From a virus, in IMG/VR virus record IMGVR_UViG_3300042935_001795, positions 1-64,000 of that record: a DNA stretch of 64,000 bases; one strand, given 5' to 3'. The position numbers and the translations under genes are program-made. Positions 9,808 through 38,882 of this stretch are shown one piece after another. Within the stretch, counting starts at the first letter, position 1. Every line of letters begins with the position of its first letter. The notes beneath the pieces are model-generated. The model did no database searches. It saw nothing but the letters and a program-made list of their open reading frames with translations, and was not told the DNA's origin.

Positions 9808-11004
9808 TTAAAATAATGATGTTGAATAAATTAAGTTTCTATTTAATGTGTGTAAACCAACTGCGGTAAGAACCCGGTTCAATGGGTCTATAACACTCTT
9901 TTCGAATTGTGTTTCATAGTCAACTGTCGGAGCAATTTCATAGGGATGAGATCCTGGCTGGTATGCAAATATTTCGCAAGTTCCATGCTTACAATGGTAC
10001 AGTTTTAACTTTTCGCCATTACCAATCATCTTATACTTATTCTTGTGCTTTGGATTTTGGTTCATTAAGAAATTATAAAACCCAGCAGCTTTTACGTTTG
10101 GCGGACATTTTAAACCATATTGAAATTCTACCGTATCATCTATGATATATTTTTCGATATTGTTAGTTCTTTTATTAAAACATATCTCATCAACACTTGC
10201 TAATTGAAATTCTTTTTTACATTGTTTCAAATAGTCTACAAGTCTCTTTAATAGGGACGCAGTAGGTTTTTCTGAAAGAATAAGTTTAAGTATCTCGGTT
10301 AATTGCTTTCTTGCAAGAGCTGGAGTTGAACTTTGAATTGTATCAAATCCGATTGTTTTCACTTTCTTAAGTGAAGGGTAACGTTCTTCGATTCCAATTT
10401 TATCCTCCCATGCAATATTCTGCAGGTATTTTTTCTTAGCTAACCAAATCCCAGAGTAGGCAATTGTTTCCAATTCAAACTGGAGGAAGTTTTCGGTATT
10501 AGTGGCTTCTGCATATTTCTCCATACACTTAAAAATATAATCCTTAAGTCTAAAGTTATACAATTTCATAATGAATTGGTCAATCGATATCTTGTCTCCA
10601 AGCCATTCAATAGATTCATACATCTCTTCAAACTGTACATAACAAGAATCGGTATCAATATAGACTACTGAAGGTCGCACAAGTTTATTTTTAACTTGAA
10701 TGTTAAAAAACTCATGAACTGCCTTGTCTTTAGTCCAGAACTCTTGAAAATACTTATTTAGTATCTTCTCAGAATATAGAATCGCAGATTGACCCTGTAA
10801 GGTAATAGATTCTGCGATGTCTATATTAAAAAAGTGAAACCATTTGTTACCGAAGGCGCCATAGATCGAGTTAAGCATTACTTTTACGGCTTGCTCATAG
10901 GCTCCAAACTTTGCTGACAACATAGAATAATGCTCAACCAATGTTTTAATTTCATCTTGTGATAAATCACTCTCTGGTTTTAGTATTAGTTCTTCGATTG
11001 TCAT
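9808..11004 (-). CDS. 43: DNA polymerase family B, C-terminal piece (palm motifs B and C, thumb)
   Basis: Carries family B motif B (KVMLNSIYG, residues 41-49) and motif C (YIDTDS, 115-120 with both catalytic Asp), followed by a thumb-like region. It lacks any exonuclease domain and motif A, which are in the separate gene at 17822-19219, so the polymerase is split in the fingers region; the two pieces sum to 863 residues, near T4 gp43 (898). The N-terminus MTIEELILKPESDLSQ reads as a normal new start rather than a truncated frame. It ends IYSTSLF, a hydrophobic tail like those that bind the sliding clamp. It is adjacent to the clamp gene, which begins 3 nt upstream. The two halves must associate to give an active enzyme. 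Confidence 0.93.
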   Translation of the reverse strand: MTIEELILKPESDLSQDEIKTLVEHYSMLSAKFGAYEQAVKVMLNSIYGAFGNKWFHFFNIDIAESITLQGQSAILYSEKILNKYFQEFWTKDKAVHEFFNIQVKNKLVRPSVVYIDTDSCYVQFEEMYESIEWLGDKISIDQFIMKLYNFRLKDYIFKCMEKYAEATNTENFLQFELETIAYSGIWLAKKKYLQNIAWEDKIGIEERYPSLKKVKTIGFDTIQSSTPALARKQLTEILKLILSEKPTASLLKRLVDYLKQCKKEFQLASVDEICFNKRTNNIEKYIIDDTVEFQYGLKCPPNVKAAGFYNFLMNQNPKHKNKYKMIGNGEKLKLYHCKHGTCEIFAYQPGSHPYEIAPTVDYETQFEKSVIDPLNRVLTAVGLHTLNRNLIYSTSLF

Positions 11005-11819: not shown

Positions 11820-11846
11820 AAAAAAACCTGTCATTACTGACAGGTT
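11820..11846 (-). terminator. Intrinsic terminator downstream of the 31-aa ORF
   Basis: A 9-bp perfect stem AACCTGTCA / TGACAGGTT (11825-11833 with 11838-11846), 4-nt loop, followed on the minus strand by a run of U residues. It separates the capsid-targeted gene group (12.0-15.0 kb) from the clamp-polymerase-UvsX unit. Confidence 0.85.
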
Positions 11847-12005: not shown

Positions 12006-12461
12006 TTATCTTACGTCTCCTGTTCTTAGCATTGAAGAAACGTCTGTAAAGTATTTCATCTCTTCGGGTGTTAATTTAGTTTTAATATAGTTTCCAATTT
12101 TTGTTAATTGGTTTACTCTTTCTTTTTGTGCTTTAAGTCCAGCTTGACTGCTACCTAATTTAGCAGCTGCACTATATGGAGTTAAATCTTGATACATTTG
12201 TTTAAGTTTTTCATCTCCATCAAATTTCTTAATGATTTCTCCAATTAATTCTTTTCTTTGTCCTTTTGCAGCCTGTTTAGCTTTTGCTTCAGCCCTATTT
12301 GCAAGTGCTTCTGCAGCATCTCCAAGAACTCTACCAACTAGAGGTAAACTTTGAGCTACTGCCCAAAGGCCCATTAGCCCAACTGCAACTCCCATTGCAA
12401 CATCAACTACAGTTCCCATGTCTTCGTTTACGAATTCCTCGTATAATTTAACGTGTTTCAT
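12006..12461 (-). CDS. Capsid-targeted internal protein candidate, 151 aa
   Basis: Starts MKHVKLYEEFVNED, the peptide shared by a dozen proteins here and resembling the T4 capsid-targeting sequence; cleavage would fall after VNE. The rest contains a hydrophobic stretch (AMGVAVGLMGLWAVAQSLPLV), then an Ala/Lys-rich helical region and a C-terminal helix. A membrane-active segment in a packaged, injected protein would fit a role at DNA entry, but that is inference. A GATATATAA-like site (last base differs from the consensus) sits 20 nt upstream. It is followed by the 31-aa ORF and a terminator. Confidence 0.8.
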   Translation of the reverse strand: MKHVKLYEEFVNEDMGTVVDVAMGVAVGLMGLWAVAQSLPLVGRVLGDAAEALANRAEAKAKQAAKGQRKELIGEIIKKFDGDEKLKQMYQDLTPYSAAAKLGSSQAGLKAQKERVNQLTKIGNYIKTKLTPEEMKYFTDVSSMLRTGDVR

Positions 12462-12480: not shown

Positions 12481-12489
12481 TTATATATT
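12481..12489 (-). promoter_or_regulatory. Candidate late promoter element (one mismatch)
   Basis: Minus strand reads AATATATAA, one base off the GATATATAA consensus found upstream of other capsid-targeted and tail genes; it ends 19 nt before the ATG at 12461, the same spacing as the better sites. Confidence 0.35.
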
Positions 12490-13539
12490 TCTTTTTTGAA
12501 ATTTGTTTATGTTTTGATTAATAATAGTTCCACATGCAATATCGATAGCGCAATTAACTACTGGATTATCTTCCCATTTGGATGGATTGATTATAGTTTC
12601 TAAGTGCGGAACCAGTGCGGCAGAGATTTCTCTAGAAGCCGCATTCCATAAGTATGTTGGAGTATGATCGACCGAGTAGTATTGTACTCCTCTTCTCATT
12701 TTGATAATTGGATTTTTAAATGTTGTAGGTTCGGCAAAAAAGAATCCCATTCCCTTGTCACAACTAATATCGATAATTGCACAGTTTTTGCGTAATTGGT
12801 CTAGTTGATTCAAATCTTTAATAAACATTAGTGGATTATTTACGTCCTGTAGGACTCCATTAAATATAATATTGGCAGAGTACATGTCCTCCCAAATATC
12901 ATCATCATTAAAGTTTTTGTACCAAACATCAGGATTTTTATCAGCTACTAGGTGTGTAGGTCTCTGTGTATATACTGTGATGTTGTTAAAACCTCTACCT
13001 TGTAGGGCATAGATTGCTCCTTTACTTACAGAACCAAATCCAAAAATAACAACCTTCTTACGGTCTCCATAGTGTCCATCAAGACCTGCTAATTGTAGGT
13101 AATGAATAACTCCAGCGTAACCTGCTAATTCATTGTTACGATAAAAAGCATGAATTTTTTGGTTTTTAGAAATATGATTCATCTCCTCCCATGCAATCAA
13201 TGTTAATTTTTTTTCAATGGCGATATCGGTAATGTCTCTCTGTTGAACGGCATGGGTCCAACCACATAGGGTTGAACCTTCCTGCATTTGTTTTAGGTCT
13301 TCGGCAAGGGGTTTTGGTAGTATAAGTATGCTACTCTCTTTAAAAAGATCCTCGCGACTGGCAAACTTACAACCTATTTGTTGAAGCTGAATGTCTGAAT
13401 ATCCATAATCAGTTCCATATCCCTCTTCAAAAAGGAGTTCTTTGATTATTTCTCCTGATAATCTTTCAATATGTGATGGGTGAATTGGAATACGTTTTTC
13501 GTCCTCCTTTAGCGATGTTTTAAATATTCCTGTTTTCAT
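12481..13539 (-). CDS. Alanine dehydrogenase / N5-(carboxyethyl)ornithine synthase-like oxidoreductase
   Basis: The N-terminus MKTGIFKTSLKEDEKRIPIHP matches the substrate-binding start of the alanine dehydrogenase/PNT/lysine-oxopimelate family (EKRIPIHP), and a Rossmann segment VVIFGFGSVSKGAIYAL gives the NAD(P)-binding glycine motif. At 352 residues it fits N5-(carboxyethyl)ornithine synthase, which makes an N-carboxyethyl amino acid from pyruvate and ornithine with NADPH, or a saccharopine-like dehydrogenase. It starts 1 nt after the stop of the ATP-grasp gene at 13541, so the two may act in one pathway. It has no capsid-targeting peptide, unlike both flanking genes. The exact substrate cannot be read from sequence. 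Confidence 0.7.
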   Translation of the reverse strand: MKTGIFKTSLKEDEKRIPIHPSHIERLSGEIIKELLFEEGYGTDYGYSDIQLQQIGCKFASREDLFKESSILILPKPLAEDLKQMQEGSTLCGWTHAVQQRDITDIAIEKKLTLIAWEEMNHISKNQKIHAFYRNNELAGYAGVIHYLQLAGLDGHYGDRKKVVIFGFGSVSKGAIYALQGRGFNNITVYTQRPTHLVADKNPDVWYKNFNDDDIWEDMYSANIIFNGVLQDVNNPLMFIKDLNQLDQLRKNCAIIDISCDKGMGFFFAEPTTFKNPIIKMRRGVQYYSVDHTPTYLWNAASREISAALVPHLETIINPSKWEDNPVVNCAIDIACGTIINQNINKFQKRNI

Positions 13540-13540
13540 A

Positions 13541-14623
13541 TTAGTCTAAATTAAAAAAATATCGATATCCATCTTTTGCTTTTGGATCTGTCAATATCTT
13601 GTAGTCCATTGGCCACTGGGACGAATCGATTTCTTTTTTAAATTTTGGGTAATAATTTTGATGTCCAGGAACTACATATTTTAGGTAAATATCCTCTAAG
13701 AATTCATCATCTAGAGGTTCTCCATAAAAATCTTCGTACATTGCCTTATAAACTTCGCACATTTTAACGCTTCCAAGTCCGGTAGCAGATGATGTTTCCA
13801 TAATCCACATTTTACCTTTTTTATCTACAACAATATCTAAGGCCCATAAGTCTAGGTCCAAGAATGTTTTAATGTCTTTACAAATTGATTGAGCATTTTC
13901 AATAAATTCAGGGTCTACTTTGTTTTGGTCTTGATAAACATAAGTAAAGCTGATTTTTTCATCTGCAGTTTTTGTTTTAATCGACCTATCATCTTCAATT
14001 CTTGGTACTCTTTCATTAATAATAAATATTTTGTCTCTACAAAACATTACTCTATATTCTCTAGCAAAATCTATAAATTGACAAAAGATATCGAATGTAT
14101 CTTTGCTCTCTTCTAATTCTTTGGCAGTGTCAAATTTTTGAATACCAAGTCCGCTATGTCCATCTTTTATTTTTGCAATTACTGGAAAACCGACGTCTCC
14201 TTTAATTGCATCCTCTTTTGAAAAACATGTTTTTGGAAGCCAATCAAATTTTGCGGCCGCTTTTGCAAATTTTATTTTATCTCCTGAAAGTGGAAGTAAT
14301 TCTCTCTTGTTGTATAAATTATCATTATTGATACCTTTATTCTTTAAGAATCCGATCGCTTCTGGGTCTACTGCTCCGCCATAATTAAGTATTGGCACAT
14401 CTCCAGGTACTACAACTTTATCGTCTTCAAAATCCTCTTTGGTTGCGTAGTTCAAGAATAGGTTACCTTTCGCGGCAATATTGTATTTCTTTTCACGACC
14501 ATTAACATCACCTGAAGTTGCATGAATGTCATGAGATTTCATAATCCATGCCACTTTCTTAGCATATTTGTTTTTAAGATTTTCTTCGTAGACGAATTCT
14601 TCGAAAAGCTTGATTGGAATCAT
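13541..14623 (-). CDS. ATP-grasp ligase with capsid-targeting-like N-terminus
   Basis: The first residues MIPIKLFEEFVYEE match the shared capsid-targeting peptide. The body has an ATP-grasp layout: FPVIAKIKDGHSGLGIQ (ATP-binding lysine and glycine-rich loop), CQFIDFAREYRVMF, INERVPR, and WALDIVVDKKGKMWIMETSS (metal-binding Asp/Glu). This is like RimK/carboxylate-amine ligases that join an amino acid or peptide by ATP-dependent amide formation. It is next to an alanine-dehydrogenase-like enzyme. A packaged ligase would act on the host right after injection; this is inference from the peptide. If the peptide is cleaved, residues after ~14 are mature. Confidence 0.72.
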   Translation of the reverse strand: MIPIKLFEEFVYEENLKNKYAKKVAWIMKSHDIHATSGDVNGREKKYNIAAKGNLFLNYATKEDFEDDKVVVPGDVPILNYGGAVDPEAIGFLKNKGINNDNLYNKRELLPLSGDKIKFAKAAAKFDWLPKTCFSKEDAIKGDVGFPVIAKIKDGHSGLGIQKFDTAKELEESKDTFDIFCQFIDFAREYRVMFCRDKIFIINERVPRIEDDRSIKTKTADEKISFTYVYQDQNKVDPEFIENAQSICKDIKTFLDLDLWALDIVVDKKGKMWIMETSSATGLGSVKMCEVYKAMYEDFYGEPLDDEFLEDIYLKYVVPGHQNYYPKFKKEIDSSQWPMDYKILTDPKAKDGYRYFFNLD

Positions 14624-14629: not shown

Positions 14630-15022
14630 TTATATTGTTTTTACTAAACGAACTGAATATGCTTGTCCTCCATCGGTAAAATATTCTTGTTTTCCTGAGC
14701 CAAAGTTTTGAACCCATACCGCATTCTTACCAAACGTTTCTGAAGACATGTAAAACGCATTCATTCTAAGGTTAGGTAATAGAGTAACGTTTTGGTGCAT
14801 TGTAGTTAGTTCTTCTCTAGTTGGCAATCTCCAACCTTTACCCATTTTTTTGGCTAAACGATTTGCGTTAACCAATTTAAGATCTGCTCCGTTAAGTTCA
14901 CTTAAGTCACGTTCTGCAACTTCAATGTTACCAATTGTAATAGGGTTTCCAATTACATCAGATGCAGTATATAACCCAGCAATCTCATTAATAAAGTCTT
15001 CGTATAATTTAATATATTTCAT
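14630..15022 (-). CDS. Capsid-targeted internal protein with DUF1566-like domain, 130 aa
   Basis: Begins MKYIKLYEDFINE, the shared capsid-targeting-like peptide, followed by a ~110-residue domain with KGWRLPTREELTTM, the hallmark of DUF1566/Lcl C-terminal-type domains, and VWVQNFGSGKQEYF near the end. Those domains are lectin-like folds on surface or adhesive proteins; the ligand here is unknown. A consensus GATATATAA site is 22 nt upstream (15044-15052), and the gene is the first of the unit that ends at the 11820 terminator. Confidence 0.8.
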   Translation of the reverse strand: MKYIKLYEDFINEIAGLYTASDVIGNPITIGNIEVAERDLSELNGADLKLVNANRLAKKMGKGWRLPTREELTTMHQNVTLLPNLRMNAFYMSSETFGKNAVWVQNFGSGKQEYFTDGGQAYSVRLVKTI

Positions 15023-15043
15023 ATTATTTACATTTTATTTTAT

Positions 15044-15052
15044 TTATATATC
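15044..15052 (-). promoter_or_regulatory. Candidate late promoter GATATATAA
   Basis: Exact minus-strand GATATATAA, preceded by GG, 22 nt upstream of the ATG at 15022 and just downstream of the NrdA-unit terminator, where a new transcription unit should start. Confidence 0.5.
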
Positions 15053-15068: not shown

Positions 15069-15100
15069 AAAAAAGCAGGGAGTAGCGAATTCCCTGCTTT
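15069..15100 (-). terminator. Intrinsic terminator after nrdA
   Basis: 10-bp stem AAAGCAGGGA / TCCCTGCTTT (15072-15081 with 15091-15100), 9-nt loop, U run on the minus strand. The 59 nt between it and the nrdA stop contain AGGACCG...CACG, similar to the sequence in front of the 11820 terminator. Confidence 0.85.
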
Positions 15101-17821: not shown

Positions 17822-19219
17822 TTATTGGAGTAGTTTTTTCAACCGGTCTGCTTTTGTGAAATATTCATAAGAAGTTTTTTTATAATCTTTACGCTGTGCA
17901 TAAAGGTCACTTAATATTTTTCTTAGAATAGAATCCTCGGTCTTATAAACTACACCATTATCGCAAACAATAACCTCTTTATTCTTTCTGCGTTCTTCAA
18001 TTTCACTTTTATAAATCTTTTCAATATAAGCATCTGGAGATATATTGAACTGTCTCATGATCGAAGGGTATAGTGAAGCAAAATCGAATGCGCTTACACC
18101 TTCATAAAATCCTAAGATTGGTTCTTTTACGAATGCTCCAGCATATTGGCCATCTTTTTGACTGTCAGATTTCTCTTCACTTCCAATTCGCATTCCTTGC
18201 TCAGCAAGTTTTCTGGCCATAATTGCTTCAGTAACCGCCACTGGAGAACTTGCTTTATACAATGGCATATTAGTAATGTTTGCCAAGGTTAGTAGTACCT
18301 CCATCGACTTCAACTTCTGGTCAATGTAATATACAAGCACTGAATCGACAACATTGTAATATATGTACTTGACAAAGTTATCCCGGTATAAGTCCTGTAG
18401 TGAGCCAGTGAACTTGATTTTGTTAACGTTCAAGACTTGACTAGAAACATAATCCAAAGAGTTGGATTCCTTAACCTTTACAGTTCGGTCATATTTGTCA
18501 TACAATTGCATGTAGTCAAGAATTCCGATATGAAGAGGTCGACCGTCAGTATGATCGATTGAATTGGTCATACCAACTTCTTTAATATCAATTTGAAGTC
18601 TTTTACAACGATTAACAATATATTGCCAGTCATAGTTAATAAAATTCCACCCAGTCATCATTGGAAACTTTGGTAAGAATTTCATTAAGAATGTGTAAAC
18701 CATGTCATACTCAGACTTGAACTTATGGTACTTAAATTCCCAATCCTGATCAAAGTCTTTAAAATACTCATTGGTATCGTCTTGAATCTTTTGGATTTTA
18801 TCCGAAGCCATATCCTCTAAACCTAAAACAATTGCTTTACGATCTGGAGTAATTATTGAGAATGAAAGAATTCTACTTTTGGCCTCTTCGGCTTTTGGAA
18901 AGCCATCGACAATTTCAGTTTCAATATCGACAAAATACGTCTTTGGCATATTATATGCTGTTAGGTCTTTTTTGTCCTTCTCTGAAAGATTATCTAAAAA
19001 ATAAAGGATTGAAAACTTATTAAATTGTTTTCCATATCCTAATTTAACAGGTCGGCCATCCCAGTTTTTATACTCTGGGCTTGCTGCTCTGTCTTTTTCA
19101 TCACAAACATACCAATTTTGGAATTTGTCCACTGGATATTGTTTGAATGCTACTTCTCCCTTGTCATTGTAGTATGAAATGATAACATCTTTTTCACGCT
19201 GTTCGATGTCTAAAATCAT
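17822..19219 (-). CDS. 43: DNA polymerase family B, N-terminal piece (exonuclease and motif A)
   Basis: Contains the proofreading exonuclease motifs: Exo I YFVDIETE (D98, E100), Exo II GWNFINYDWQY, and Exo III YNVVD (Y288, D292). Polymerase motif A is DFASLYPSI at 379-387. It then stops after a fingers-like helix (YAQRKDYKKTSYEYF). Motifs B and C are in the separate gene at 9808-11004, about 6.8 kb away, so this is a split gp43. The stop codon is a clean gene end, and the intervening 6.8 kb of intact genes rules out a simple frameshift. The dUTPase gene overlaps the start by one base. Split gp43 genes with a break in the fingers are known in some T4-like Aeromonas phages. Confidence 0.93.
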   Translation of the reverse strand: MILDIEQREKDVIISYYNDKGEVAFKQYPVDKFQNWYVCDEKDRAASPEYKNWDGRPVKLGYGKQFNKFSILYFLDNLSEKDKKDLTAYNMPKTYFVDIETEIVDGFPKAEEAKSRILSFSIITPDRKAIVLGLEDMASDKIQKIQDDTNEYFKDFDQDWEFKYHKFKSEYDMVYTFLMKFLPKFPMMTGWNFINYDWQYIVNRCKRLQIDIKEVGMTNSIDHTDGRPLHIGILDYMQLYDKYDRTVKVKESNSLDYVSSQVLNVNKIKFTGSLQDLYRDNFVKYIYYNVVDSVLVYYIDQKLKSMEVLLTLANITNMPLYKASSPVAVTEAIMARKLAEQGMRIGSEEKSDSQKDGQYAGAFVKEPILGFYEGVSAFDFASLYPSIMRQFNISPDAYIEKIYKSEIEERRKNKEVIVCDNGVVYKTEDSILRKILSDLYAQRKDYKKTSYEYFTKADRLKKLLQ

Positions 19220-19728: not shown

Positions 19729-20916
19729 TTAAAATAAACATGAACTTTTAAATGATACGTTTTCAACCTCGCATGATTCACCAATTTGCTCTTTTGAAAT
19801 TGGAGCATTTGCTCGGTTCAAGGCCATCTTTTTACTATCTCTAAGTCTTAGAAATACACCAAATTGACAACAACTAATTTCAGTACCAAACGTAGTAAAC
19901 CTTCCAGTCTCTGTGATTGTTTCTAAATAGTCAAGATTCTCTCCAGTAAAATCAAAGAATTCATGTTGAGTGTCCCGGATTTGTCTGATGACTTTAGCTC
20001 CAACATCAGATGAAATTGAAAAACCTAAATCTTCATAGAACCAGTTGATTGTGGTCATTGCTCCAACTCCAGGTGCAACAAAGTCATCGTCTTCGTTAAG
20101 ATTTCCAGATAGACTATTTGGTCGCAATAGATCAGGAGTCCCAATTTCAGGCATTCGGGCAAGGTTGGTACTAAAGTGATATCCATAATAGTTTCCAATT
20201 CCTCGATGTGATGTTAGAAAGTCGAAAGACTCTTCCATTGTTGGTTTCTTGGCGTAGAATTCTGCGAAACGTGGACCTAGTAAGGTAAACCAAAAAAACA
20301 TATCGCTTGTTCGACTCTGTCTGGTTGGATCTGGTTCGGCATTGATTAATATATCATAAGGAGTTTTAAGAACTCGGGCATGGTTTCTCGATTCGGTCTG
20401 CAAACTTGTTCGTAATTCTGTAGTACCATAAATCTTTTCTCCACGTCTCCTTGCATTCTCCATATTAACCATGCAATGCAGAACATACTTCTCATCATTA
20501 ACTAATCGGTCATATTTAACAAATGGAAATCCAGTGTCGTGTGTTAATAGACTAATTGTATTTGACGGTCCATAGAATTTTACAATTGCTGCATTAATTA
20601 GTCGGTCTTCAAAGGTACATTCTGGATTGTAGAAGACATTTTCGTTTAACCAAATAATCTCGTCGTGAAACGAACGATTTGGGTGGAAGTATGGAACTGA
20701 TCGTCCCTCTACAATAAATCCATGCCCAAATTTGTCCTCTCCAGTACCTTCGCGATGTCTAAATGTATCGAAGGTGCATGTTTTTGCAAAACGAACTTCA
20801 TATTCTCTTCGATTCATTTCATGAATAAAATCTCGAAGTAATTGCTTTTTTTCTGCTGGTATTAAATCCAACAGCGCCTGAGAATCCATCTCAAGCAGTT
20901 TTTTATTTGAAGTCAT
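19729..20916 (-). CDS. HhH-glycosylase-like protein, possible thymine hypermodification enzyme
   Basis: Residues 239-256 (GIGNYYGYHFSTNLARMP) and 277-286 (DDFVAPGVGA) resemble the GIG helix-hairpin-helix and the D...GPG motif of alpha-glutamyl/putrescinyl-thymine pyrophosphorylase-like proteins, predicted to attach amine-containing groups to 5-hydroxymethyl-uracil-derived bases in phage DNA. The match is from memory and only partial. The middle (MNRREYEVRFAK, NARRRGEKIYG) is basic, fitting DNA binding. The C-terminus SFKSSCLF ends in a hydrophobic tail. It is flanked by a dUTPase and a T4 beta-glucosyltransferase-like gene. A non-catalytic nucleic-acid-binding protein remains possible. Confidence 0.45.
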   Translation of the reverse strand: MTSNKKLLEMDSQALLDLIPAEKKQLLRDFIHEMNRREYEVRFAKTCTFDTFRHREGTGEDKFGHGFIVEGRSVPYFHPNRSFHDEIIWLNENVFYNPECTFEDRLINAAIVKFYGPSNTISLLTHDTGFPFVKYDRLVNDEKYVLHCMVNMENARRRGEKIYGTTELRTSLQTESRNHARVLKTPYDILINAEPDPTRQSRTSDMFFWFTLLGPRFAEFYAKKPTMEESFDFLTSHRGIGNYYGYHFSTNLARMPEIGTPDLLRPNSLSGNLNEDDDFVAPGVGAMTTINWFYEDLGFSISSDVGAKVIRQIRDTQHEFFDFTGENLDYLETITETGRFTTFGTEISCCQFGVFLRLRDSKKMALNRANAPISKEQIGESCEVENVSFKSSCLF

Positions 20917-20918
20917 TT

Positions 20919-21956: not shown

Positions 21957-21957
21957 C

Positions 21958-22356
21958 CTATTTTTGTACTAATTTAGACACAATGTTAACCAATTCAACT
22001 TCAGGACAGTTTTCCTGAATGATTTGATATTGTATAGGGTCATCTTCAAAAAACCTGGAAACAATAACACCTTCACCTTTTAAACGGTTGATTGTATGTG
22101 CTTTGTGATGTCCAGAATGTCTTCTTGCCGCAACGGTATGGTTTCCACGTTCCTCAAGAGTCATTGGATTAAAATACACCTTGCATTTAATTCCTCTCTC
22201 TTTAAGGATTGCGCGAACCTCATCCTGTTCATCAACGCATCTTCCAGTAATAACAAAATCTGTTGTTGCTCTTGGAGTTATTCCAATTGAAATTACTCCG
22301 TCAAAATCGTATCCGTAGATATCGCTTGGTTTTTTGGTTTTAAAAATATTTAACAT
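21958..22356 (-). CDS. HAD-superfamily phosphatase-like protein, 132 aa
   Basis: Motif I DFDGV (D17 nucleophile, D19) and motif II VITGR (T37) of HAD hydrolases are present, as in small nucleotidase or polynucleotide-phosphatase domains. Basic His/Lys-rich residues (ARRHSGHHKAH) follow the middle. The C-terminal acidic motif SRFFEDDP fits HAD motif IV. It is the first gene downstream of the terminator at 22372 and precedes the glycosyltransferase by 2 nt. Substrate (nucleotide or nucleic-acid 3' phosphate) is unknown. Confidence 0.68.
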   Translation of the reverse strand: MLNIFKTKKPSDIYGYDFDGVISIGITPRATTDFVITGRCVDEQDEVRAILKERGIKCKVYFNPMTLEERGNHTVAARRHSGHHKAHTINRLKGEGVIVSRFFEDDPIQYQIIQENCPEVELVNIVSKLVQK

Positions 22357-22371
22357 GCTTAAAGTTTTGAT

Positions 22372-22401: not shown

Positions 22402-22422
22402 AGGTTAATGTAATTTTTAGAC

Positions 22423-31182: not shown

Positions 31183-31515
31183 TTATGCTAAATATTGTTT
31201 TTCATCACCTAACTTTGAATTTTTTAGGGCTGATGAAAACATGTCAGTATATTTTAATCCATCTAAATCTTTCATTCTTTTGGCAATAAACTTTGCAACG
31301 TCTGCTCCGTCTTTTGCAACGTTCTTTCCTAAGTAGTGAATTGCATTTCTTAAATCTGTTAAATCTTTAATAGGAAACCTACCACCTGGCATCGCTTCTC
31401 CATTTTTTTCTAATTCTTTTCTCTCTTGTGAAGTATACTTTTTTTCGTATAATTCATAAGATTCATGAATCATTGATTCATTTAAAAATTCTTCGTATAG
31501 TTTAATATGTTTCAT
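31183..31515 (-). CDS. Capsid-targeted internal protein candidate, 110 aa
   Basis: Starts MKHIKLYEEFLNESM, the shared peptide, followed by a charged ~95-residue helical domain with EKKYTSQERKELEKNGEAMPGGRFPIKDL and a C-terminal YTDMFSSALKNSKLG. Unrecognised. If cleavage occurs after LNE a ~97-residue mature protein is left. The gene starts 1 nt after the stop of the next (31517). Its first 37 nt are identical to those of the 31517 gene. Confidence 0.78.
   Translation of the reverse strand: MKHIKLYEEFLNESMIHESYELYEKKYTSQERKELEKNGEAMPGGRFPIKDLTDLRNAIHYLGKNVAKDGADVAKFIAKRMKDLDGLKYTDMFSSALKNSKLGDEKQYLA
31479..31515 (-). repeat. 37-nt direct repeat, copy 1 (capsid-targeting peptide coding start)
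   Basis: 37 nt identical to 32017-32053: the first 12 codons plus the last base of the start, with nothing else conserved between the two genes. The identity goes beyond the protein and suggests recent module copying or recombination. Confidence 0.9.
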
Positions 31516-31516: not shown

Positions 31517-32053
31517 TTACTTTTGGTCTATTTGCATGATTTCAGAACCTCTGATTTCAACATTATTTTCTCCAATTTGGGCATCATATCCACCATAAAT
31601 ATCTTCTCCGCCAGCAATTGCAGTGTTTAACATACCTCCTAATTTTTTAGAATATTTACTACCATCAGCATCATCCATAAAACCGACGTTAATTACAAAG
31701 TCTCCAGGAATTCTAATATAAAGTGGACCTCCATCTCTATTTAATCCATTAATAGTATCTGGCTCCCATGAAAGGTTTAATCCTTGAACATGAACATAAA
31801 CAACTTGGTCCATGTCTCTTACTGCCTTTTCAACTTCAGCTAGAATCATTTTTTGGGCATCTTTTCCAAAATCCCACCATGCTCCATTAACTTCTTCTAA
31901 AGTATCTGCCGCGTCTCCTTCAAAAGAGACTCTTTCAATTTCTTTTTTAAAAGCCTGCATAACTTTACCAATAATACCTTTAGAGGCATACGGCCCAGTC
32001 ATTCTGTAGACTTTCTCATTTAAAAATTCTTCGTATAGTTTAATATGTTTCAT
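31517..32053 (-). CDS. Capsid-targeted internal protein candidate, 178 aa
   Basis: Starts MKHIKLYEEFLNEKVYRM. The rest has alternating strands, GINGLN-type turns and VHVQGLNLSWEP, with no recognised family; the C-terminus ends EIRGSEIMQIDQK. Its first 37 nt are identical to those of the 31183 gene, while the bodies are unrelated, so only the peptide module is shared. A GTATATC sequence resembling the late element lies upstream, but not as an exact match. Confidence 0.78.
   Translation of the reverse strand: MKHIKLYEEFLNEKVYRMTGPYASKGIIGKVMQAFKKEIERVSFEGDAADTLEEVNGAWWDFGKDAQKMILAEVEKAVRDMDQVVYVHVQGLNLSWEPDTINGLNRDGGPLYIRIPGDFVINVGFMDDADGSKYSKKLGGMLNTAIAGGEDIYGGYDAQIGENNVEIRGSEIMQIDQK
32017..32053 (-). 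repeat. 37-nt direct repeat, copy 2
   Basis: Second exact copy of the 37-nt start segment, 538 nt from the first. Confidence 0.9.
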
Positions 32054-32066: not shown

Positions 32067-32576
32067 TTATGAATAGGCTTCGATGTCCCATTGAATTCTA
32101 TCTAATGGTTTTTCGCCGTACGCTACATTTCTCTTAACCCAATCAATAAGACCTGGTTCAAACTTGGCATTTTGGGCCATATCATATGCGTGGTCTGCAC
32201 CACCATCTCCTGACATGTTTTTAATCCATTTGTCATATTCCTTTTGGTTCCATTTTTTAGGCTTAGAATGTGGTCCATTACCTGCTGTAGAAAATGCGGC
32301 CATCGATGAACTTGGAATAAATACATCAGTAAGACCTGCGGTACCTGACTTACCATTGTCGTATCCAATCTTTTTTCTGAATTTAACTAGGGCATAATCA
32401 GCAGCCTCGATTTGACTGTTGCGTGACATTGCTCCAGTTTTTTTACCATAGGCTCTTTTAAGTTCCTCTTGTTTATCAGGGTCAGTTTCAAAGTGAATTT
32501 CTTTAATGCTATCAGTTCCCCAATCCTCATTTAAGGATTCATTAACAAAACTTTCAAATGTAGGTATGTGTTTCAT
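32067..32576 (-). CDS. Capsid-targeted internal protein candidate, 169 aa
   Basis: Starts MKHIPTFESFVNESLNEDWG; two tandem candidate cleavage sites occur (after VNE and after LNE). The body has KRAYGKKTGAMSRNSQIEAADYAL and a Trp/Gly-rich C-terminal half with AFSTAGNGPHSKPKKWNQKE. Unrecognised. It is 2 nt downstream of the 32579 gene stop. Confidence 0.76.
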   Translation of the reverse strand: MKHIPTFESFVNESLNEDWGTDSIKEIHFETDPDKQEELKRAYGKKTGAMSRNSQIEAADYALVKFRKKIGYDNGKSGTAGLTDVFIPSSSMAAFSTAGNGPHSKPKKWNQKEYDKWIKNMSGDGGADHAYDMAQNAKFEPGLIDWVKRNVAYGEKPLDRIQWDIEAYS

Positions 32577-32578: not shown

Positions 32579-32923
32579 TTATCTTTGTTTTCCAATTGTT
32601 ACTTGTCCCATTTGAATAGCCTTTTCGATTTGATCGTATAACTCTTGGGCATTTTTAATATCTTTTGTGGGAATCTCAAATTCTCCTTTTTTGCAAAGAA
32701 GAACGTAATACTCACCATTGTTAGTTATATTAAAATACTCATCTCCTGTCATAAAAGGAATTTTCTTTCCTCTAACAGAACCAGACCCTATTTCAATTGT
32801 TCCTTTAGAAGAATTTAATAGTTTAGCCACCTTGTCAAGTATTTTATCATCCGTTGTTTTAACTCCCTCCGGATATTCTATCTTTTCATTAACAAACTGT
32901 TCGAATAGTTTAATATGTTTCAT
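32579..32923 (-). CDS. Capsid-targeted internal protein candidate, 114 aa
   Basis: Starts MKHIKLFEQFVNEKIEYPEG, then TTDDKILDKVAKLLNSSKGT and a small beta-rich body (EIGSGSVRGKKIPFMTGDEY, YYVLLCKKGEF). Unrecognised. Like its neighbours it is short and highly charged. It ends 1 nt before the 764-aa gene stop, so it is co-transcribed with that gene. Confidence 0.77.
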   Translation of the reverse strand: MKHIKLFEQFVNEKIEYPEGVKTTDDKILDKVAKLLNSSKGTIEIGSGSVRGKKIPFMTGDEYFNITNNGEYYVLLCKKGEFEIPTKDIKNAQELYDQIEKAIQMGQVTIGKQR

Positions 32924-32924: not shown

Positions 32925-35219
32925 TTACCAAGCGTAATTTTTAGCTTCTACTTTCTTAACGTAATCAACGATTGTTTTAGAACTTTCTTTTAATCTACCT
33001 TCATAGAATTTTCCGCTATAACCGGTTGCAACTTCTTTTTCAGCATCAACAACGTATCCAACGTATCTGTTATATTCATCTAAGATATTTCTCATTAAAT
33101 TAGAAGCATCGCTCATTTTGATTTCTCTACCTTTAGGGTCTAGTCCAACAATAAGTTCTCCATATCTTCCTTTTTCACCTTTAGATAGTGCATCTTTAAT
33201 TTGAGTAGCAAGAGTATCAATAGCTCCTAATACAACTGAATCCATCGGCATTTCAGATGCTTTTTGCGCTAAGATTTGGTTATAACGGGCTTTGTTTTCT
33301 GCTTTAAAGTCTTTGTCACTTTGAAAAGCAGTAGCTCCTCTTTTATCATTAGCTCTTTGTAACTGAAGTGATGTTGTAGAATATCTTGCTTTAAGAACAT
33401 CTAAGTCAATAACGTAAACGGTATCTGCTAGTTCAGCTACTTTAGTAAGGGAGGTAATTCCTGAACCATCGTATCTTTTAGAGTCTCTTTTATCAAAACC
33501 TGCTGCATCTTCTCTAGTTTTTGTAATTTTTAAAGTTTCTCCTTTTGTATAGCTATTGTATGCAGTTGAGTACCATTCATTACTTCCGTTAGTTATTGCT
33601 AATAAGGTATTTGATTGGATAATTCCATTATTATAAGTACTTGGAATACTACCTTCGATGTATGGATTTTCTTTTTGGTTATTTACTATATAGAAGTAAA
33701 CACCATTAGCTCTTTTTTCTTTACGAGCAGTTTGAGGGTCCATTTCAATAATGTCATAATCTTCAATTTTGTCAATTGCTAATTTTGAAAAGTTATAGAA
33801 TGCTCCTGCAAGGTCTTTAGTACCTGCGCTTCCTACTGAAAAAAGGTTAGCCAGTTTAGCACTTTTAAATGCCTCATTTAATGTACTTTCATTTAGTTTG
33901 TTTGCAACGAAATCCGCGAAAGATTCGTAAATAAATTTTGTTGTCATATCATTTATATTTTTATTTTCGTCTAAGTCAATTACCCAAGCATATTCAACAT
34001 ACTTGATAGCATCTTCTGGATTCACATCCCATTTAAGTGCCGCATCTAATACGATTTTTCTTGTGATTTTTTGGTTTGGGTATTTTGCAATTTCTTTATC
34101 AAATCCTCCAGGAACCCAAATCTTTGGGGCCTTTGTAGTGGCTTCTGAAACCATTACATTTTTAAGGATTCTTGAACCTGTTTTTGATAGTGATATTCCA
34201 TCTTCAGATACGTTAAAACACTGAGCGTTTCTTCTCAACCATCTTTTAGAATCTGTGGTCATTTCTTTAAGAATATTATTAAAATCTTCCTGTGAAACTT
34301 TACCATCTTTAATAGCCTCTAACATTCTGTTACGAACTTTAGCAGCTTTACCTACAGTAACTGCCGGATTTTTATCAGTATATTGTCTTTTGATTGTAAC
34401 GTTTCTTTCATTAACTACTGATTCGTTTAAACCAAACTCTCTGATATCGTTTTGTCCATTGTCAAATGATTTTTGAATAGAGTCTAGTGCTTCTTTTCTA
34501 TCGCTTGATTTTTCAAAACCAATTTCACTATCAGTAAATGCTCTTGAATATTTTTTCCATGAGTCTTTTGATAAATCAGCAACTTTTCTTAAGTTGATTG
34601 CTGTAGATTCTATACGATATCTTCCAATTGTTCCGGCTGGGTAATTGTTAGTTGATAAACCTAAAAATAATTTAGCCTCATCTAAAGAAGATTCTTTAAT
34701 AATTTTATCATCTTTATGGAAAATGTATTCCATTTTCTTACCAGTTTTCTTGAATTCACCAGTATAAGAAACTTCTCCATCTTTATTTTTAAAAACTTTA
34801 TCAACTACAAATTCTCCATCAGATGAAGCGTATGGAATTACAATACTTCCTTTTTTAACGGTAGCCTCATTTGTAACTGATTCATTCGCCATCATCTTTT
34901 TAAAACCTTTTGCAATAGTTTTAATATCGTCTTTAATTTTACCTAAAACTGGATTTTCGCGAATGGCCATATTTACAACATTACCATTTTTGTAAATGTT
35001 GTATGAACCACCATCAAATTCTTCGTCATTATAGTCTAGGTCAAAACCATCTTCCTCTAATGTTCTTTTATTTACTGCCCATTTTCCATTTTCAGGGTCT
35101 ACACTAGCCGCAGCATCTGCAAATTTTTGAGCAATTTTAAGTGTCTCATCTTTAGTAAGTCCAGCAGGTCCACCATAAGTTGAGGTACTACCTTCGTTTA
35201 GGAATTCATTAAAATTCAT
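32925..35219 (-). CDS. Large capsid-targeted protein with multiple ES-x-x-NEA sites, possible polyprotein
   Basis: 764 residues starting MNFNEFLNEGSTSTYGG. Internal sites resembling the N-terminal peptide and its cleavage context recur: ANESVTNEATVKKG, IKESSLDEAKLF, LNESVVNERNVTI, ANKLNESTLNEAF. Each would fit the T4 prohead protease consensus (L/I/V)xE before A, G or S. Segments between sites look like separate small domains. The 620-740 region has KGEKGRYGELIVGLDPKGRE. A GATATATAA site lies 25 nt upstream. Proteolytic processing is a hypothesis; no protease gene is in the window. Confidence 0.75.
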   Translation of the reverse strand: MNFNEFLNEGSTSTYGGPAGLTKDETLKIAQKFADAAASVDPENGKWAVNKRTLEEDGFDLDYNDEEFDGGSYNIYKNGNVVNMAIRENPVLGKIKDDIKTIAKGFKKMMANESVTNEATVKKGSIVIPYASSDGEFVVDKVFKNKDGEVSYTGEFKKTGKKMEYIFHKDDKIIKESSLDEAKLFLGLSTNNYPAGTIGRYRIESTAINLRKVADLSKDSWKKYSRAFTDSEIGFEKSSDRKEALDSIQKSFDNGQNDIREFGLNESVVNERNVTIKRQYTDKNPAVTVGKAAKVRNRMLEAIKDGKVSQEDFNNILKEMTTDSKRWLRRNAQCFNVSEDGISLSKTGSRILKNVMVSEATTKAPKIWVPGGFDKEIAKYPNQKITRKIVLDAALKWDVNPEDAIKYVEYAWVIDLDENKNINDMTTKFIYESFADFVANKLNESTLNEAFKSAKLANLFSVGSAGTKDLAGAFYNFSKLAIDKIEDYDIIEMDPQTARKEKRANGVYFYIVNNQKENPYIEGSIPSTYNNGIIQSNTLLAITNGSNEWYSTAYNSYTKGETLKITKTREDAAGFDKRDSKRYDGSGITSLTKVAELADTVYVIDLDVLKARYSTTSLQLQRANDKRGATAFQSDKDFKAENKARYNQILAQKASEMPMDSVVLGAIDTLATQIKDALSKGEKGRYGELIVGLDPKGREIKMSDASNLMRNILDEYNRYVGYVVDAEKEVATGYSGKFYEGRLKESSKTIVDYVKKVEAKNYAW

Positions 35220-35252: not shown

Positions 35253-37115
35253 TTTGTTAATAAATTGTTCGAATGTCATAATTTCATTGGAAGCCGATTC
35301 AGCTACTACTCCCATTGCATCTTCAATTTTAGATTTTAGTTCATTGTACATTCTATGAATTGCGTTTGGAGTTAAATTGTTAAATAGTTTTTCGTCTCCA
35401 TCTAATAGCGCATTTCTAACTGCAGTAGCCGAAATATCATCGTCAGTTCTTGGAATTTCAAAAAGTCCAAAATCAGCTCTACAGTTTAATTGGTCTCTAT
35501 ATGCATCATTATTAACTTGATAACCATAACTTGTCATTCTATCACTTCCCGTTCCCCAAAGTACTGGCTCATATTTAGGTCTCATTTCATTAAACATAAT
35601 ATCGATACCTCCGGTTGGAACTACAAATATTTCTTTAAGGAATGGATATTGTTTTTTAACATTGTTGAACATATCAATTTGAGTCTTTTCATCGTATGGT
35701 CTGCTAAATTCATCACCTTTCTTTTTGGTTTTTGATTTAACAAGGAATACAACTACAGGGAATCCATTCTCTTTATGTATAGTTTCTAAAACTTTTGCAT
35801 GTCCCAGTGTAAATGGCTGAAATCGTCCAACAAACATGTTTACTGGTTGTTTTCCTTGTTCAACATGAGTAAGTTTAAGTGCCTCGTTTAAGTCAACTGA
35901 GGATTTAATTCTATTACGTAACATGTAATTTTGGAAATCATAGATTGCATTTTCATCAGTATTTTCAACAAATATCTTTTCATTAATTTTTTCGATGATT
36001 TCGTTTAAACGTTCCATAGTATCTGTGTCTATTAAATCTGAAGTTTTGGTTCGCTTCTTTCTAAAAGAACCTAAAATCATTTTAAAAAGTTCTGCTAAAA
36101 TATCATTTGAAACATATTTTAGGGTTTTTTCATCAGTAATATATTTGGCGTTTAATTTAAAAGATTCTGCTGATGAAAATTCAGCACTTTCAAAATTAAC
36201 TCCAATATATTTTGAAGAGTTTTTGTCGACATATTCATTAAATATAATCGACATTATTTCAAGATATCGATAATCTGCTCTTTCGTCTTCGAGTTGAACT
36301 TCATCGATTTTAAATTGAGTTATAAATTCTAAAAAGTCAGTGACTGCAATTTGATACATGTGACTTGAAGAGTTATCGATTGTATTTTTTCGAATAAAGT
36401 CCTCTAATTTAAAAGATTTAATAGATTTTTCATCAATAAAATTAACAACCAATCCATCAAATTCGTCTTCAATTCCAGAATTTAGGGCAGTTTCAAATGC
36501 ACTATTGTTAAAAAGTTTAACTATTTTACTAGTAAAACTTGTTTTGTCTTTTGTCTCCTCTAAATAATCAAATGTTTCGCTAAATTCTCTATCGCTCATT
36601 CCAAGTAATTCTAGTAACTCATCCCGTTGTAATTGAGATAAATAGCCATCAAAAATTACACTTGGCCGTTGAACATCAAGAATTTTTGCCCATTTATTTA
36701 AGATAACCGGGTCATTTATAGTTTTCTTAACCTTATCGCCTTCTCCTATTTGTTGAATGTGAGTTAGGATTAAGTTATTTTTTGGAGTTTTTTGGTATTT
36801 AATTTTAGATACATTAACTTCTGGTAGGTATTCAAAACCAAATCTCCAATCAAGTGGCATTTGGTTTTTAGTAGAGCTTGGTAAACTTTGCATATAGTTG
36901 ATTGCAATCTCATATAGAGAAATAATAGTTCGGTCAACTAAATTTAATTTGTCTGAATTTGAAGATTTAAAATATTCAAATCCATCAAGATTTCTTTTAA
37001 CAAGAAATGTAGGTGCAGAAACTTTCTCAGTTACTAACACCCTATTTTTTAACATTTCAATAAAGGTTTCTCTATTGGTTTCGTTAAAATACTCTCTTAA
37101 TTTTTGTAATGCCAT
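35244..37115 (-). CDS. Fused ligase-like / nicotinamide-nucleotide adenylyltransferase-like protein with C-terminal targeting-like peptide
   Basis: The C-terminal ~200 residues form a nucleotidylyltransferase domain: MFVGRFQPFTLGHAKVL (the HxGH-type start) and ISATAVRNAL (the ISSTxxR-like motif), as in NMN or pantetheine adenylyltransferases. The N-terminal ~400 residues include VKRNLDGFEYFK, LDWRFGFEYLPE and DEFDGLVVNF, which resemble polynucleotide ligase segments, but the KxDG spacing is not canonical. It ends MTFEQFINKDI, the targeting peptide pattern at the C-terminus, which is unexpected. It overlaps the KTDG ligase gene by one base, so the pair is coupled. A ligase-adenylyltransferase fusion suggests nucleic-acid end or NAD-related chemistry, not proven. 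Confidence 0.68.
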   Translation of the reverse strand: MALQKLREYFNETNRETFIEMLKNRVLVTEKVSAPTFLVKRNLDGFEYFKSSNSDKLNLVDRTIISLYEIAINYMQSLPSSTKNQMPLDWRFGFEYLPEVNVSKIKYQKTPKNNLILTHIQQIGEGDKVKKTINDPVILNKWAKILDVQRPSVIFDGYLSQLQRDELLELLGMSDREFSETFDYLEETKDKTSFTSKIVKLFNNSAFETALNSGIEDEFDGLVVNFIDEKSIKSFKLEDFIRKNTIDNSSSHMYQIAVTDFLEFITQFKIDEVQLEDERADYRYLEIMSIIFNEYVDKNSSKYIGVNFESAEFSSAESFKLNAKYITDEKTLKYVSNDILAELFKMILGSFRKKRTKTSDLIDTDTMERLNEIIEKINEKIFVENTDENAIYDFQNYMLRNRIKSSVDLNEALKLTHVEQGKQPVNMFVGRFQPFTLGHAKVLETIHKENGFPVVVFLVKSKTKKKGDEFSRPYDEKTQIDMFNNVKKQYPFLKEIFVVPTGGIDIMFNEMRPKYEPVLWGTGSDRMTSYGYQVNNDAYRDQLNCRADFGLFEIPRTDDDISATAVRNALLDGDEKLFNNLTPNAIHRMYNELKSKIEDAMGVVAESASNEIMTFEQFINKDI

Positions 37116-38404
37116 TATCTTCCGTATTTTATAATTCCCATTAATTGATTAATTGCAGCGAATGTTCCTGTTAATTTGTACATGTGTCCTTTGTATGAAA
37201 ATACGATACCTTCAGTCGGTATAATAGATTGGATTCCTCCAATTCTCTCTAATCTGTCAAGTTCTTTTGCAACCTTTTCGATTTGAGTAAGGTCTCCATT
37301 TAGTTTAATTTTGTCGGCTTCGGTTCGGATTTCGTTATGTAGTCTTTGCATTTCTTTTTCAGGAGAAGCAGCAACAAAATTACTTGCATTCTTTAAGATA
37401 ACACTTCCCAATTCTAAGAAAAGGTCTTCAAATGGTCGAATGTTTTCTTTAAATTTTACTTTAAAGTCCTCTTTGTCGAACTTTTTAACGGCTTCGGCTT
37501 GTTCCTTTGTTAACTCCTTGTCTAAAGAACGCATGTTTAATGTTTTCTTGTCGTCATATGCCCATCTTAACAATAAACCTTCTTTGATATTCTGGGGTAG
37601 GTCACCAAATATTGTTTCAATTTGCTCTCTCCACCACATTTCATGGTAGCGAGCAACTGAGTCAGCATCGGTTAATTTATAACGATTTTTAAGAGTATCT
37701 AGTTTTCCTAAGAATTTAGACTGATTCTCTTCAAAATTTATATCTTTTTGTAGTTTAATAACTTGTGGAGGGATTATTGTAAATGTTTTTCCAATGTCAG
37801 CATTTAAAGATTTAAGAACTCCGGTAACACTTTTTGCCGCACTATTGTCGTCTCCAACTATATTTCCTGCGCCATCAGTCTTCTTGATACCATGAAATTG
37901 AATTACGTCAACGTCATAGTGAATAACGTTAGGGTTAGCAGAATATATCAACTCCATGTTCATGAAGTTCAGACCATTCTGGAACACTTCCTCTTGTGTT
38001 TTAGCCGGTAACTTTATAAGCAGAGTTGCTAAATCAGTGGCTGCAAATTGGAAAGTATCTTGTACTAATTTACTTGCATGTCCTTCAAATTTATTTTGAA
38101 AATCCTTAAGGCTCATTGGAGTTTGCAACTCAGTTTTATTTCTGGCAAATTTAACTTCACCATTTTGAATAGTTGCAAAAACGTTTTGACCGTCAGTTTT
38201 TTCAGTAGGCTCTTCTTCGAAGTTTAATTCTCCTTGAAGTCCACCAATAATCATATTCTTGAAGTCTCCGAATGTTAGGTCATTGTTATCGAATGGATGA
38301 GACATGTGTCCGGCAGCTCCACCTTCTAATAGTAACCGTTCATTCAATTTAACTTCGTACCTTTCGGTTATGAACCGGTTAAAATTAAGGATTCTTTTTT
38401 TCAT
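37115..38404 (-). CDS. KTDG ligase-like nucleotidyltransferase with targeting-type N-terminus
   Basis: Residues 69-72 are KTDG within EKTDGQNVFATI, the nucleotidyl-lysine motif I of ATP-dependent ligases; PTEGIVFSYKG near residue 405 fits motif IV and HMYKLTGTF motif V. An upstream HMSHPFDNNDLTFGDFK segment is shared with conserved phage ligase-like proteins. The N-terminus MKKRILNFNRFITERYEVKLNE resembles the targeting peptide with two candidate sites (ITE, LNE). At 429 residues it is a full ligase-like core. Substrate (RNA, DNA or protein) is unknown; coupling to the adenylyltransferase suggests end repair. Confidence 0.75.
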   Translation of the reverse strand: MKKRILNFNRFITERYEVKLNERLLLEGGAAGHMSHPFDNNDLTFGDFKNMIIGGLQGELNFEEEPTEKTDGQNVFATIQNGEVKFARNKTELQTPMSLKDFQNKFEGHASKLVQDTFQFAATDLATLLIKLPAKTQEEVFQNGLNFMNMELIYSANPNVIHYDVDVIQFHGIKKTDGAGNIVGDDNSAAKSVTGVLKSLNADIGKTFTIIPPQVIKLQKDINFEENQSKFLGKLDTLKNRYKLTDADSVARYHEMWWREQIETIFGDLPQNIKEGLLLRWAYDDKKTLNMRSLDKELTKEQAEAVKKFDKEDFKVKFKENIRPFEDLFLELGSVILKNASNFVAASPEKEMQRLHNEIRTEADKIKLNGDLTQIEKVAKELDRLERIGGIQSIIPTEGIVFSYKGHMYKLTGTFAAINQLMGIIKYGR

Positions 38405-38405: not shown

Positions 38406-38882
38406 TTATAAGCTTTCTAATTTTTTACTTAAATCAAGTATGTTTGCATTAATTCTTATTTTTTGATTATCAAGGTCAAGAGCTGACATTTTAAGAGTTG
38501 CTATTTGGGCTTGAATTGCAGATTTTGGGTCATCTACTTTTTGGTTTAAGTCATTAACTTTATTTCTAAGTTCTTTTCTTTTTAAGAGTAGATCGGATGC
38601 TTTTAATGAAAGATCAGCTCTTGCATCAGAGTAATTAGATTCTGCAACACCATTATTTCCTTCCATTCCATCATATACAGAGTTTAAGTTTTCTAAAGAA
38701 ACTGTTAATTGAGAAAACATCCAAGACTCTAGTTGTTCTCCTTCTGTCATTCTCTGTTTAATCATGCCTGCATATTCTGCAATTTTTTGAAGTTGACCCA
38801 TAGTCATATCATTTAATTCGGCTAGGGTATCTCGACCCTCTGCTTCATTTAAGAACTCTTCAAATAGGTTAATATGTTTCAT
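38406..38882 (-). CDS. Capsid-targeted coiled-coil protein, 158 aa
   Basis: Begins MKHINLFEEFLNEAEGRD; a longer frame from 38921 would add 13 residues and overlap the terminator, so 38882 is preferred. The body is a long alpha-helical coiled coil (KELRNKVNDLNQKVDDPKSA, KMSALDLDNQKIRI), like a T4 core/scaffold-type protein. Cleavage would be after LNE. It begins the unit that ends at 31131. Confidence 0.8.
   Translation of the reverse strand: MKHINLFEEFLNEAEGRDTLAELNDMTMGQLQKIAEYAGMIKQRMTEGEQLESWMFSQLTVSLENLNSVYDGMEGNNGVAESNYSDARADLSLKASDLLLKRKELRNKVNDLNQKVDDPKSAIQAQIATLKMSALDLDNQKIRINANILDLSKKLESL

What the first reader, a model, noticed from the sequence alone, without database searches (positions are those of the whole stretch)
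13541..14623. ATP-grasp ligase carrying a capsid-targeting peptide
An enzyme with clear ATP-grasp motifs begins with MIPIKLFEEFVYEE. If packaged, it would be an injected enzyme acting at the start of infection, and its coupling to an alanine dehydrogenase/CeoS-like enzyme suggests an amino-acid or peptide modification pathway.
Basis: partly seen in the sequence, partly recalled or inferred. Interest (0 to 1): 0.68.

Follow-up and report, generated by a model that had tools for sequence, protein, structure and literature searches.

The report
Phage ATP-grasp ligase with packaging leader
A T4-like virus of bacteria encodes an enzyme that probably joins molecules by amide bonds, tagged with the kind of short leader that phage T4 uses to load proteins into its head, so it may be injected into the host with the viral DNA alongside a dozen or more similarly tagged proteins.

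Summary
The ORF is real (minus strand, 13541-14623, 360 aa). It has the conserved ATP-grasp residues, though profile hits are weak and the AlphaFold model is poor. Its first 13 residues (MIPIKLFEEFVYE) belong to a leader shared by about 12 otherwise unrelated proteins in this record and 13-21 in each relative scanned. A matrix trained on the other leaders, with no T4 data, ranks T4's internal head proteins IPIII and IPII first and second of 611 T4 ORFs, scaffold gp22 fourth and IPI fifth. Relatives carry the T4-type prohead protease and capsid protein. The 'capsid-targeting peptide' reading is therefore well supported; packaging and injection remain unproven. The partner enzyme is closer to N5-(carboxyethyl)ornithine synthase than to alanine dehydrogenase, has no leader, and is paired with an unrelated ATP-grasp in E. 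coli polysaccharide loci. Best reading: a packaged amide ligase plus a co-expressed reductive-amination enzyme, in a transcription unit bounded by terminators. Substrate unknown. Caveats: the presumed protease site is lost in part of the family, and a jumbo-phage homologue lacks the partner. New variant of a known kind (T4 internal proteins), with a cargo enzyme I found described nowhere.

The parts
13541..14623 (-). ATP-grasp ligase, 360 aa, with N-terminal leader
   Evidence: ORF; catalytic residues invariant; ATP-grasp families
14585..14623 (-). leader MIPIKLFEEFVYE of the ATP-grasp; presumed protease site VYE|E
   Evidence: matrix score 22.2, trained without it; T4 IPII/IPIII leader MKTYQEFIAE|A
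12481..13539 (-). CeoS-like enzyme of the AlaDH/PNT superfamily, 352 aa, no leader; starts 1 base after the ligase stop
   Evidence: PF05222/PF01262; groups with CeoS, not AlaDH
14630..15022 (-). leader-bearing protein MKYIKLYEDFINE... with Lcl_C domain (PF07603), first gene of the unit
12006..12461 (-). leader-bearing protein MKHVKLYEEFVNE..., last gene of the unit, unknown body
15041..15048 (-). TATAAATA promoter-like element, 26 nt before the first gene of the unit; same or related element upstream of the ligase in relatives L001-L010 and L014
   Evidence: the motif alone is not enriched in the window (12 found, 11.4 expected)
15069..15100 (-). intrinsic terminator between the ribonucleotide reductase gene and this unit
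   Evidence: read; fold -14.6 kcal/mol, z -5.1
11825..11846 (-). intrinsic terminator closing the unit before the sliding-clamp gene
   Evidence: fold -12.5 kcal/mol, z -4.2
31183..31515 (-). leader-bearing protein MKHIKLYEEFLNE
31517..32053 (-). leader-bearing protein MKHIKLYEEFLNE
32067..32576 (-). leader-bearing protein MKHIPTFESFVNE
32579..32923 (-). leader-bearing protein MKHIKLFEQFVNE
32925..35219 (-). leader-bearing 764-aa protein MNFNEFLNE, no known family
37115..38404 (-). leader-bearing protein MKKRILNFNRFITE
38406..38882 (-). leader-bearing protein MKHINLFEEFLNE

Best explanation
The gene encodes a canonical ATP-grasp amide ligase carrying a T4-type capsid-targeting leader. Inferred course: during head assembly the leader docks the enzyme into the prohead core; the phage's gp21-type (S77) protease may then trim the leader; the enzyme stays in the filled head with other leader-bearing proteins and enters the next host with the DNA. 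There it would activate a carboxylate with ATP and join it to an amine, modifying a host protein or small molecule. The adjacent CeoS-like enzyme, co-transcribed but without a leader, would make an N-(1-carboxyethyl) amino acid (or similar) from a keto acid and an amino acid, the probable ligase substrate once phage genes are expressed. Shown by sequence: ATP-grasp residues, leader, gene pair, unit boundaries, and protease plus gp23 in relatives. Inferred: packaging, cleavage, injection, substrate, joint pathway.
For: Leader matrix trained on the other leaders of this record, without T4, ranks T4 ipIII and ipII 1st-2nd, gp22 4th and ipI 5th of 611 T4 ORFs (three IPs in the top five by chance about 3e-7). 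Leaders per genome 13-21 against 0-2 in permuted controls. Leaders chosen on their first six positions only are followed by [LIVM]xE in 56 of 81 cases outside this record, against 1.8% background; the next residue is most often S or A. S77 protease and gp23 in relatives; leader proteins lie between portal, protease and gp23. The leader is kept on the ligase down to 68% identity, including one read from a GTG start, VTNLHTYESFLNEA. CeoS-like partner in every clade member with downstream sequence; an independent ATP-grasp/CeoS pair with overlapping or abutting genes in E. coli polysaccharide loci.
Against: No proteomics. Cleavage-site Glu is Lys in L004-L007, L009, L010, L014. The window leader departs from the usual MKHI start. 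The partner has no leader. LR756500 lacks CeoS and its ligase leader is weak. ExN is ExS in this clade. AlphaFold pLDDT 52.6; best Foldseek E 0.018. The phage and E. coli ligases are not detectably close.
Confidence: 0.45

Rival explanations
1. The leader once targeted the capsid but on this gene is decaying; ligase and CeoS-like enzyme work together in the infected cell, modifying a metabolite or surface glycan (for example to exclude other phages), not as a packaged enzyme.
For: Partner without leader but translationally adjacent; protease-site Glu lost in about half of the near relatives; E. coli ATP-grasp/CeoS pair sits among glycosyltransferase and flippase genes.
Against: KLFEEF core kept on the ligase across the family and even with a different start codon and sequence in L057; flanked by other leader genes in most relatives.
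Confidence: 0.27
2. The pair takes part in DNA base hypermodification, adding an amino-acid-derived group to modified thymine.
For: The same record encodes a 5-hmdU kinase helical-domain protein, a T4 beta-glucosyltransferase-like protein and an inositol-phosphate synthase homologue at 19.7-23.6 kb.
Against: The pair is a separate unit bounded by terminators and carries a packaging-type leader, which a DNA modifier acting before packaging would not need.
Confidence: 0.08
3. The leader is not a capsid-targeting signal but another phage-specific N-terminal tag (degradation, localisation or translation signal).
For: No packaging data for this clade; some leader proteins lack the [LIVM]xE site.
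Against: Blind match to T4 internal proteins and scaffold gp22; leader proteins in the head-assembly module.
Confidence: 0.15

Closest known systems
T4 internal head proteins IPI, IPII, IPIII and Alt (packaged, injected; CTS MKTYQEFIAEA on IPII/IPIII)
   Same: Short N-terminal leader of one pattern on unrelated proteins; [LIV]xE at its end; phage with S77 protease and gp23
   Different: A dozen or more leader proteins per genome instead of a few; cargo includes an ATP-grasp ligase; packaging untested
R2K clade of ATP-grasp enzymes (CDC123; phage R2K.2 proposed to modify host proteins, PMC4431377)
   Same: ATP-grasp in phages with a proposed modification role; best Pfam hit is R2K_2
   Different: Linker lysine and GxSGxG loop are both intact here, the opposite of the defining R2K features; hit below cut-off
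D-Ala-D-Ala ligase, RimK and tubulin-tyrosine-ligase-type ATP-grasp amide ligases
   Same: Catalytic residues and order; TIGR01205 3.5e-8 and TTL 1.7e-5 for the jumbo homologue; Foldseek tops TTLL6
   Different: No assignment to any one subfamily; ExS in place of ExN in this clade
N5-(carboxyethyl)ornithine synthase, CeoS (partner enzyme)
   Same: 28-30% identity, NxxxAGYAG motif and R/H/D residues shared, same side of the tree away from AlaDH
   Different: Closer (about 43%) to uncharacterised enzymes in E. coli polysaccharide loci and actinobacteria; catalytic-region lysine one position later
ATP-grasp + CeoS-like pair in E. coli polysaccharide loci (NZ_AP027746, NZ_JCAPTY010000003, NZ_CP148570)
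   Same: Same two enzyme types, ligase first, genes touching or overlapping
   Different: Ligase is RimK-like and not detectably close to the phage one; no leader; glycan context

Membership tests
T4-type capsid-targeted internal proteins | about 10-aa N-terminal leader shared by unrelated proteins | tested here: met
T4-type capsid-targeted internal proteins | [LIV]xE prohead-protease site at end of leader | tested here: inconclusive
   VYE|E in the window; VYK in L004-L007, L009, L010, L014; 56 of 81 leaders have it
T4-type capsid-targeted internal proteins | phage encodes S77 prohead protease and gp23-type capsid | tested here: met
   in relatives G001, G002, G004 (protease also in G003, and below cut-off in G009); this record is a fragment without the head region
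T4-type capsid-targeted internal proteins | present in virion, trimmed, injected | not testable with these tools
   needs virion proteomics
ATP-grasp amide ligases | linker Lys, strand-2 Lys, ssxGbGl loop, Arg in first strand of the kinase-like domain, Asp, ExN (as listed in PMC4431377) | tested here: met
   K116, K151, GHSGLGI, R191, D263 and E276 met; N of ExN is Ser in this clade, Asn in LR756500
ATP-grasp amide ligases | fold | tested here: inconclusive
   pLDDT 52.6, pTM 0.51; top 17 PDB hits all ATP-grasp proteins but E 0.018 or worse
ATP-grasp amide ligases | ATP-dependent amide bond formation | not testable with these tools
   needs assay
R2K ATP-grasp clade | linker Lys absent | tested here: not met
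   K116 invariant; definition
R2K ATP-grasp clade | RAGNYA loop lacks ssxGbGl and has a second Lys/Arg | tested here: not met
   GHSGxGI loop intact
CeoS (partner 12481-13539) | AlaDH/PNT superfamily domains | tested here: met
   PF05222 5e-17, PF01262 1.4e-7
CeoS (partner 12481-13539) | groups with CeoS rather than AlaDH | tested here: met
   branch 100/100 separating AlaDH (long branches noted, midpoint root); shared NxxxAGYAG
CeoS (partner 12481-13539) | NADPH- and pyruvate-dependent condensation with ornithine/lysine | not testable with these tools
   no NAD-type Asp after strand 2 (VYTQRP), as in CeoS; substrate unknown

The most novel reading that the evidence does not exclude
Phages of this clade, including a 462-kb jumbo relative, inject a large interchangeable arsenal of leader-tagged proteins at infection. 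It includes an amide ligase that tags a host target, possibly with an opine-type amino acid made by its CeoS-like partner: a protein or metabolite modification that I found described for no phage.
Probability: 0.25. Interest if true: 0.8.

Novelty: new variant of a known kind. Interest (0 to 1): 0.57.

Why it matters
If the leader is a capsid-targeting signal, it gives a sequence-only way to list which proteins a whole clade of T4-like phages injects at the start of infection. Many have unknown bodies, and these are likely places for anti-defence and takeover functions. An injected ATP-grasp ligase would be the amide-ligase counterpart of T4 Alt, which ADP-ribosylates host RNA polymerase, and the pairing with a CeoS-like enzyme points to a testable chemistry.

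Tried and rejected
R2K membership (best Pfam hit) rejected: the linker Lys and loop that R2K enzymes lack are present. AlphaFold with 11 close relatives was useless (pLDDT 44); adding the jumbo homologue gave 52.6, still below a safe fold claim. Bacterial relatives of the ligase: none in genome contigs or plasmids. A degenerate DNA scan for more ligase homologues returned only the known family plus two false hits, L113 and L115. T4 late-promoter motif TATAAATA is not enriched in the window or before leader genes, so late expression is not claimed. Phage and E. coli ligases as close kin: not supported. AlaDH assignment of the partner replaced by CeoS-like. Literature searches for this pair or for this leader in other phages found nothing in the held library; that library is incomplete.

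Full report
What is there. The ORF at 13541-14623 lies on the minus strand and encodes 360 aa starting MIPIKLFEEFVYEENLKNKYAKKVAW. The window is part of an 89,642-base virus record. The surrounding genes are those of a T4-like phage: helicase, UvsY-like protein, primase and single-strand-binding protein by PHROGs, with a clamp, ribonucleotide reductase and DNA polymerase recognised from sequence. Sixteen viral loci encode a relative of the ORF at 71-97% identity; a further one has 68%. A 462-kb uncultured phage, LR756500, has a 35-39% identical homologue.

The enzyme. Profile hits are weak but all point to ATP-grasp: R2K_2, Dala_Dala_lig_C, ATPgrasp_ST and YheCD, each hit by all ten aligned members. 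The jumbo homologue matches D-Ala-D-Ala ligase TIGR01205 at 3.5e-8 over the core; the single member that hits tubulin-tyrosine ligase does so at 1.7e-5 (taken to be the jumbo one). Against the residue list in PMC4431377, the family has the linker lysine (K116), strand-2 lysine (K151), loop GHSGxGI, the arginine typical of amide-forming members (R191), the aspartate (D263) and ExS/ExN (E276). It is therefore a canonical ATP-grasp and not R2K, although R2K_2 is its best Pfam hit. The AlphaFold model is poor (pLDDT 52.6). Its first 17 Foldseek hits in the PDB are all ATP-grasp proteins (TTLL6, PPIP5K2, Asp1, biotin-dependent carboxylases), but none is significant.

The leader. Eight ORFs of the window begin with an M..KLYEEFLNE-type stretch at first sight. 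I trained a nine-column matrix on eleven leaders of the record, leaving out the ATP-grasp and all T4 sequences. The ATP-grasp leader scores 22.2. In T4, ipIII and ipII rank first and second of 611 ORFs, gp22 (major scaffold) fourth and ipI fifth (identities of ipI-III from the T4 annotation; gp22 identified by me from position and sequence). With a cut of 10 there are 13, 18, 13, 21 and 16 N-terminal hits in five records of the clade, and 2 in T4. Column-permuted matrices give 0-2 on this record. Leaders selected on their first six positions alone are followed by [LIVM]xE, the known T4 protease preference (own knowledge), in 56 of 81 cases outside this record against 1.8% background, and the following residue is most often Ser or Ala. 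Relatives carry the S77 prohead protease and gp23. In G001, two leader-like proteins sit between portal, protease and capsid genes, where T4 keeps its core proteins. LR756500 also has some 20 leader-bearing ORFs. That a CTS drives proteins into the T4 core and is conserved on IPII and IPIII is from PMC9958956 and PMC3012670.

The leader on the ligase. It is found across the family (MIPIKLFEEFVYE, MQYVKLFEEFIYE, MNHVKLFEEFIYE, MKHVKLFEQFIFE). In L057, whose ATG-initiated ORF starts after it, an in-frame GTG gives VTNLHTYESFLNEA, resembling that genome's own leaders. Against cleavage: L004-L007, L009, L010 and L014 have VYK in place of VYE. In LR756500 the start MKFIKPYEEFKIND is weak.

The partner and the unit. 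The next gene, one base downstream, is in the AlaDH/PNT superfamily. It shares NxxxAGYAG with Lactococcus CeoS, lacks the NAD-type aspartate, and falls on the CeoS side of the tree; its closest relatives (38-43%) are annotated N5-(carboxyethyl)ornithine synthase in an E. coli plasmid and in a streptomycete. Compared with AlaDH, the Arg, His and Asp of the active site (known from AlaDH structures, own knowledge) align; the lysine sits one column later. In E. coli polysaccharide loci the CeoS-like gene overlaps or abuts an ATP-grasp gene that is RimK-like (TIGR00768 1.6e-7 and 2.1e-9). The two ligases are not detectably close, so the pairing probably arose, or was reshuffled, more than once, which supports a functional link. 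LR756500 keeps the ligase but has no CeoS match, so the ligase can do without it. In the window the unit runs: terminator (15100-15069), TATAAATA (15048-15041), leader/Lcl_C gene, ligase, CeoS-like gene, leader gene, terminator (11846-11825). In relatives the leader genes around the pair differ from genome to genome, as for an exchangeable cassette site.

How it most likely works. A ligase is loaded into the prohead by its leader, possibly trimmed, and injected; it then joins a carboxylate to an amine using ATP on a host target, with the CeoS-like product as a likely substrate once the genes are expressed. Steps shown: sequence features and gene order. Steps inferred: packaging, trimming, injection, substrate, joint pathway. 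The main rival is that the pair acts only inside the infected cell and the leader is decaying on this gene.

Verdict. Observation confirmed; interpretation partly supported; a new variant of a known kind.

Noticed in passing
window 19729-25329 (-): Probable DNA hypermodification cluster: 5-hmdU kinase helical domain (PF18723), a T4 beta-glucosyltransferase-like protein just under cut-off, inositol-phosphate synthase homologue (52% to Stenotrophomonas phages), FkbM methyltransferase, GDSL-like protein.
   Followed up: partly
L055 2835-3419 and 3420-3992 (also L013, L015): A nucleotidyltransferase with GRFQPFHNGH motif (MRKEYVKTFESFIFE leader) and a ferritin-like protein (PF00210, MKTFQTFK... 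start) with leader-like N-termini directly before the ATP-grasp; a packaged NMN-adenylyltransferase-type enzyme could bear on NAD-depleting defences.
   Followed up: no
window 17822-19219 and 9808-11004 (-): DNA polymerase B appears split into two ORFs about 7 kb apart (exonuclease/palm start and the YxDTDS-bearing half), with ribonucleotide reductase, the ligase unit and the clamp between them; read from sequence only.
   Followed up: no
LR756500 (L041, L133-L152): A 462-kb phage with some 20 leader-bearing ORFs (MKYIKEYEEFLNE type); its capsid protein is 52% identical to that of relative G001, and Prevotella Lak phages follow at 37%, suggesting the leader system extends to jumbo phages of Bacteroidota.
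   Followed up: partly
L011 5381-6013, L012 5376-5999: In two relatives a BPL_N/GATase-like protein (PF09825 1.6e-15 for L012) stands immediately before the ATP-grasp.
   Followed up: no
window 32925-35219 (-): 764-aa leader-bearing protein with no family and no match in 50,697 phage records, conserved in relatives; a large candidate packaged protein.
   Followed up: partly
NZ_CP148570, NZ_CP123963, NZ_CP145657 (chromosome), NZ_AP027746, NZ_JCAPTY010000003 (plasmid): Rare E. coli loci (5 of 5426 genomes) carrying ATP-grasp plus CeoS-like genes, among polysaccharide genes on the plasmids and in a transposon-ridden remnant on the chromosome examined.
   Followed up: partly
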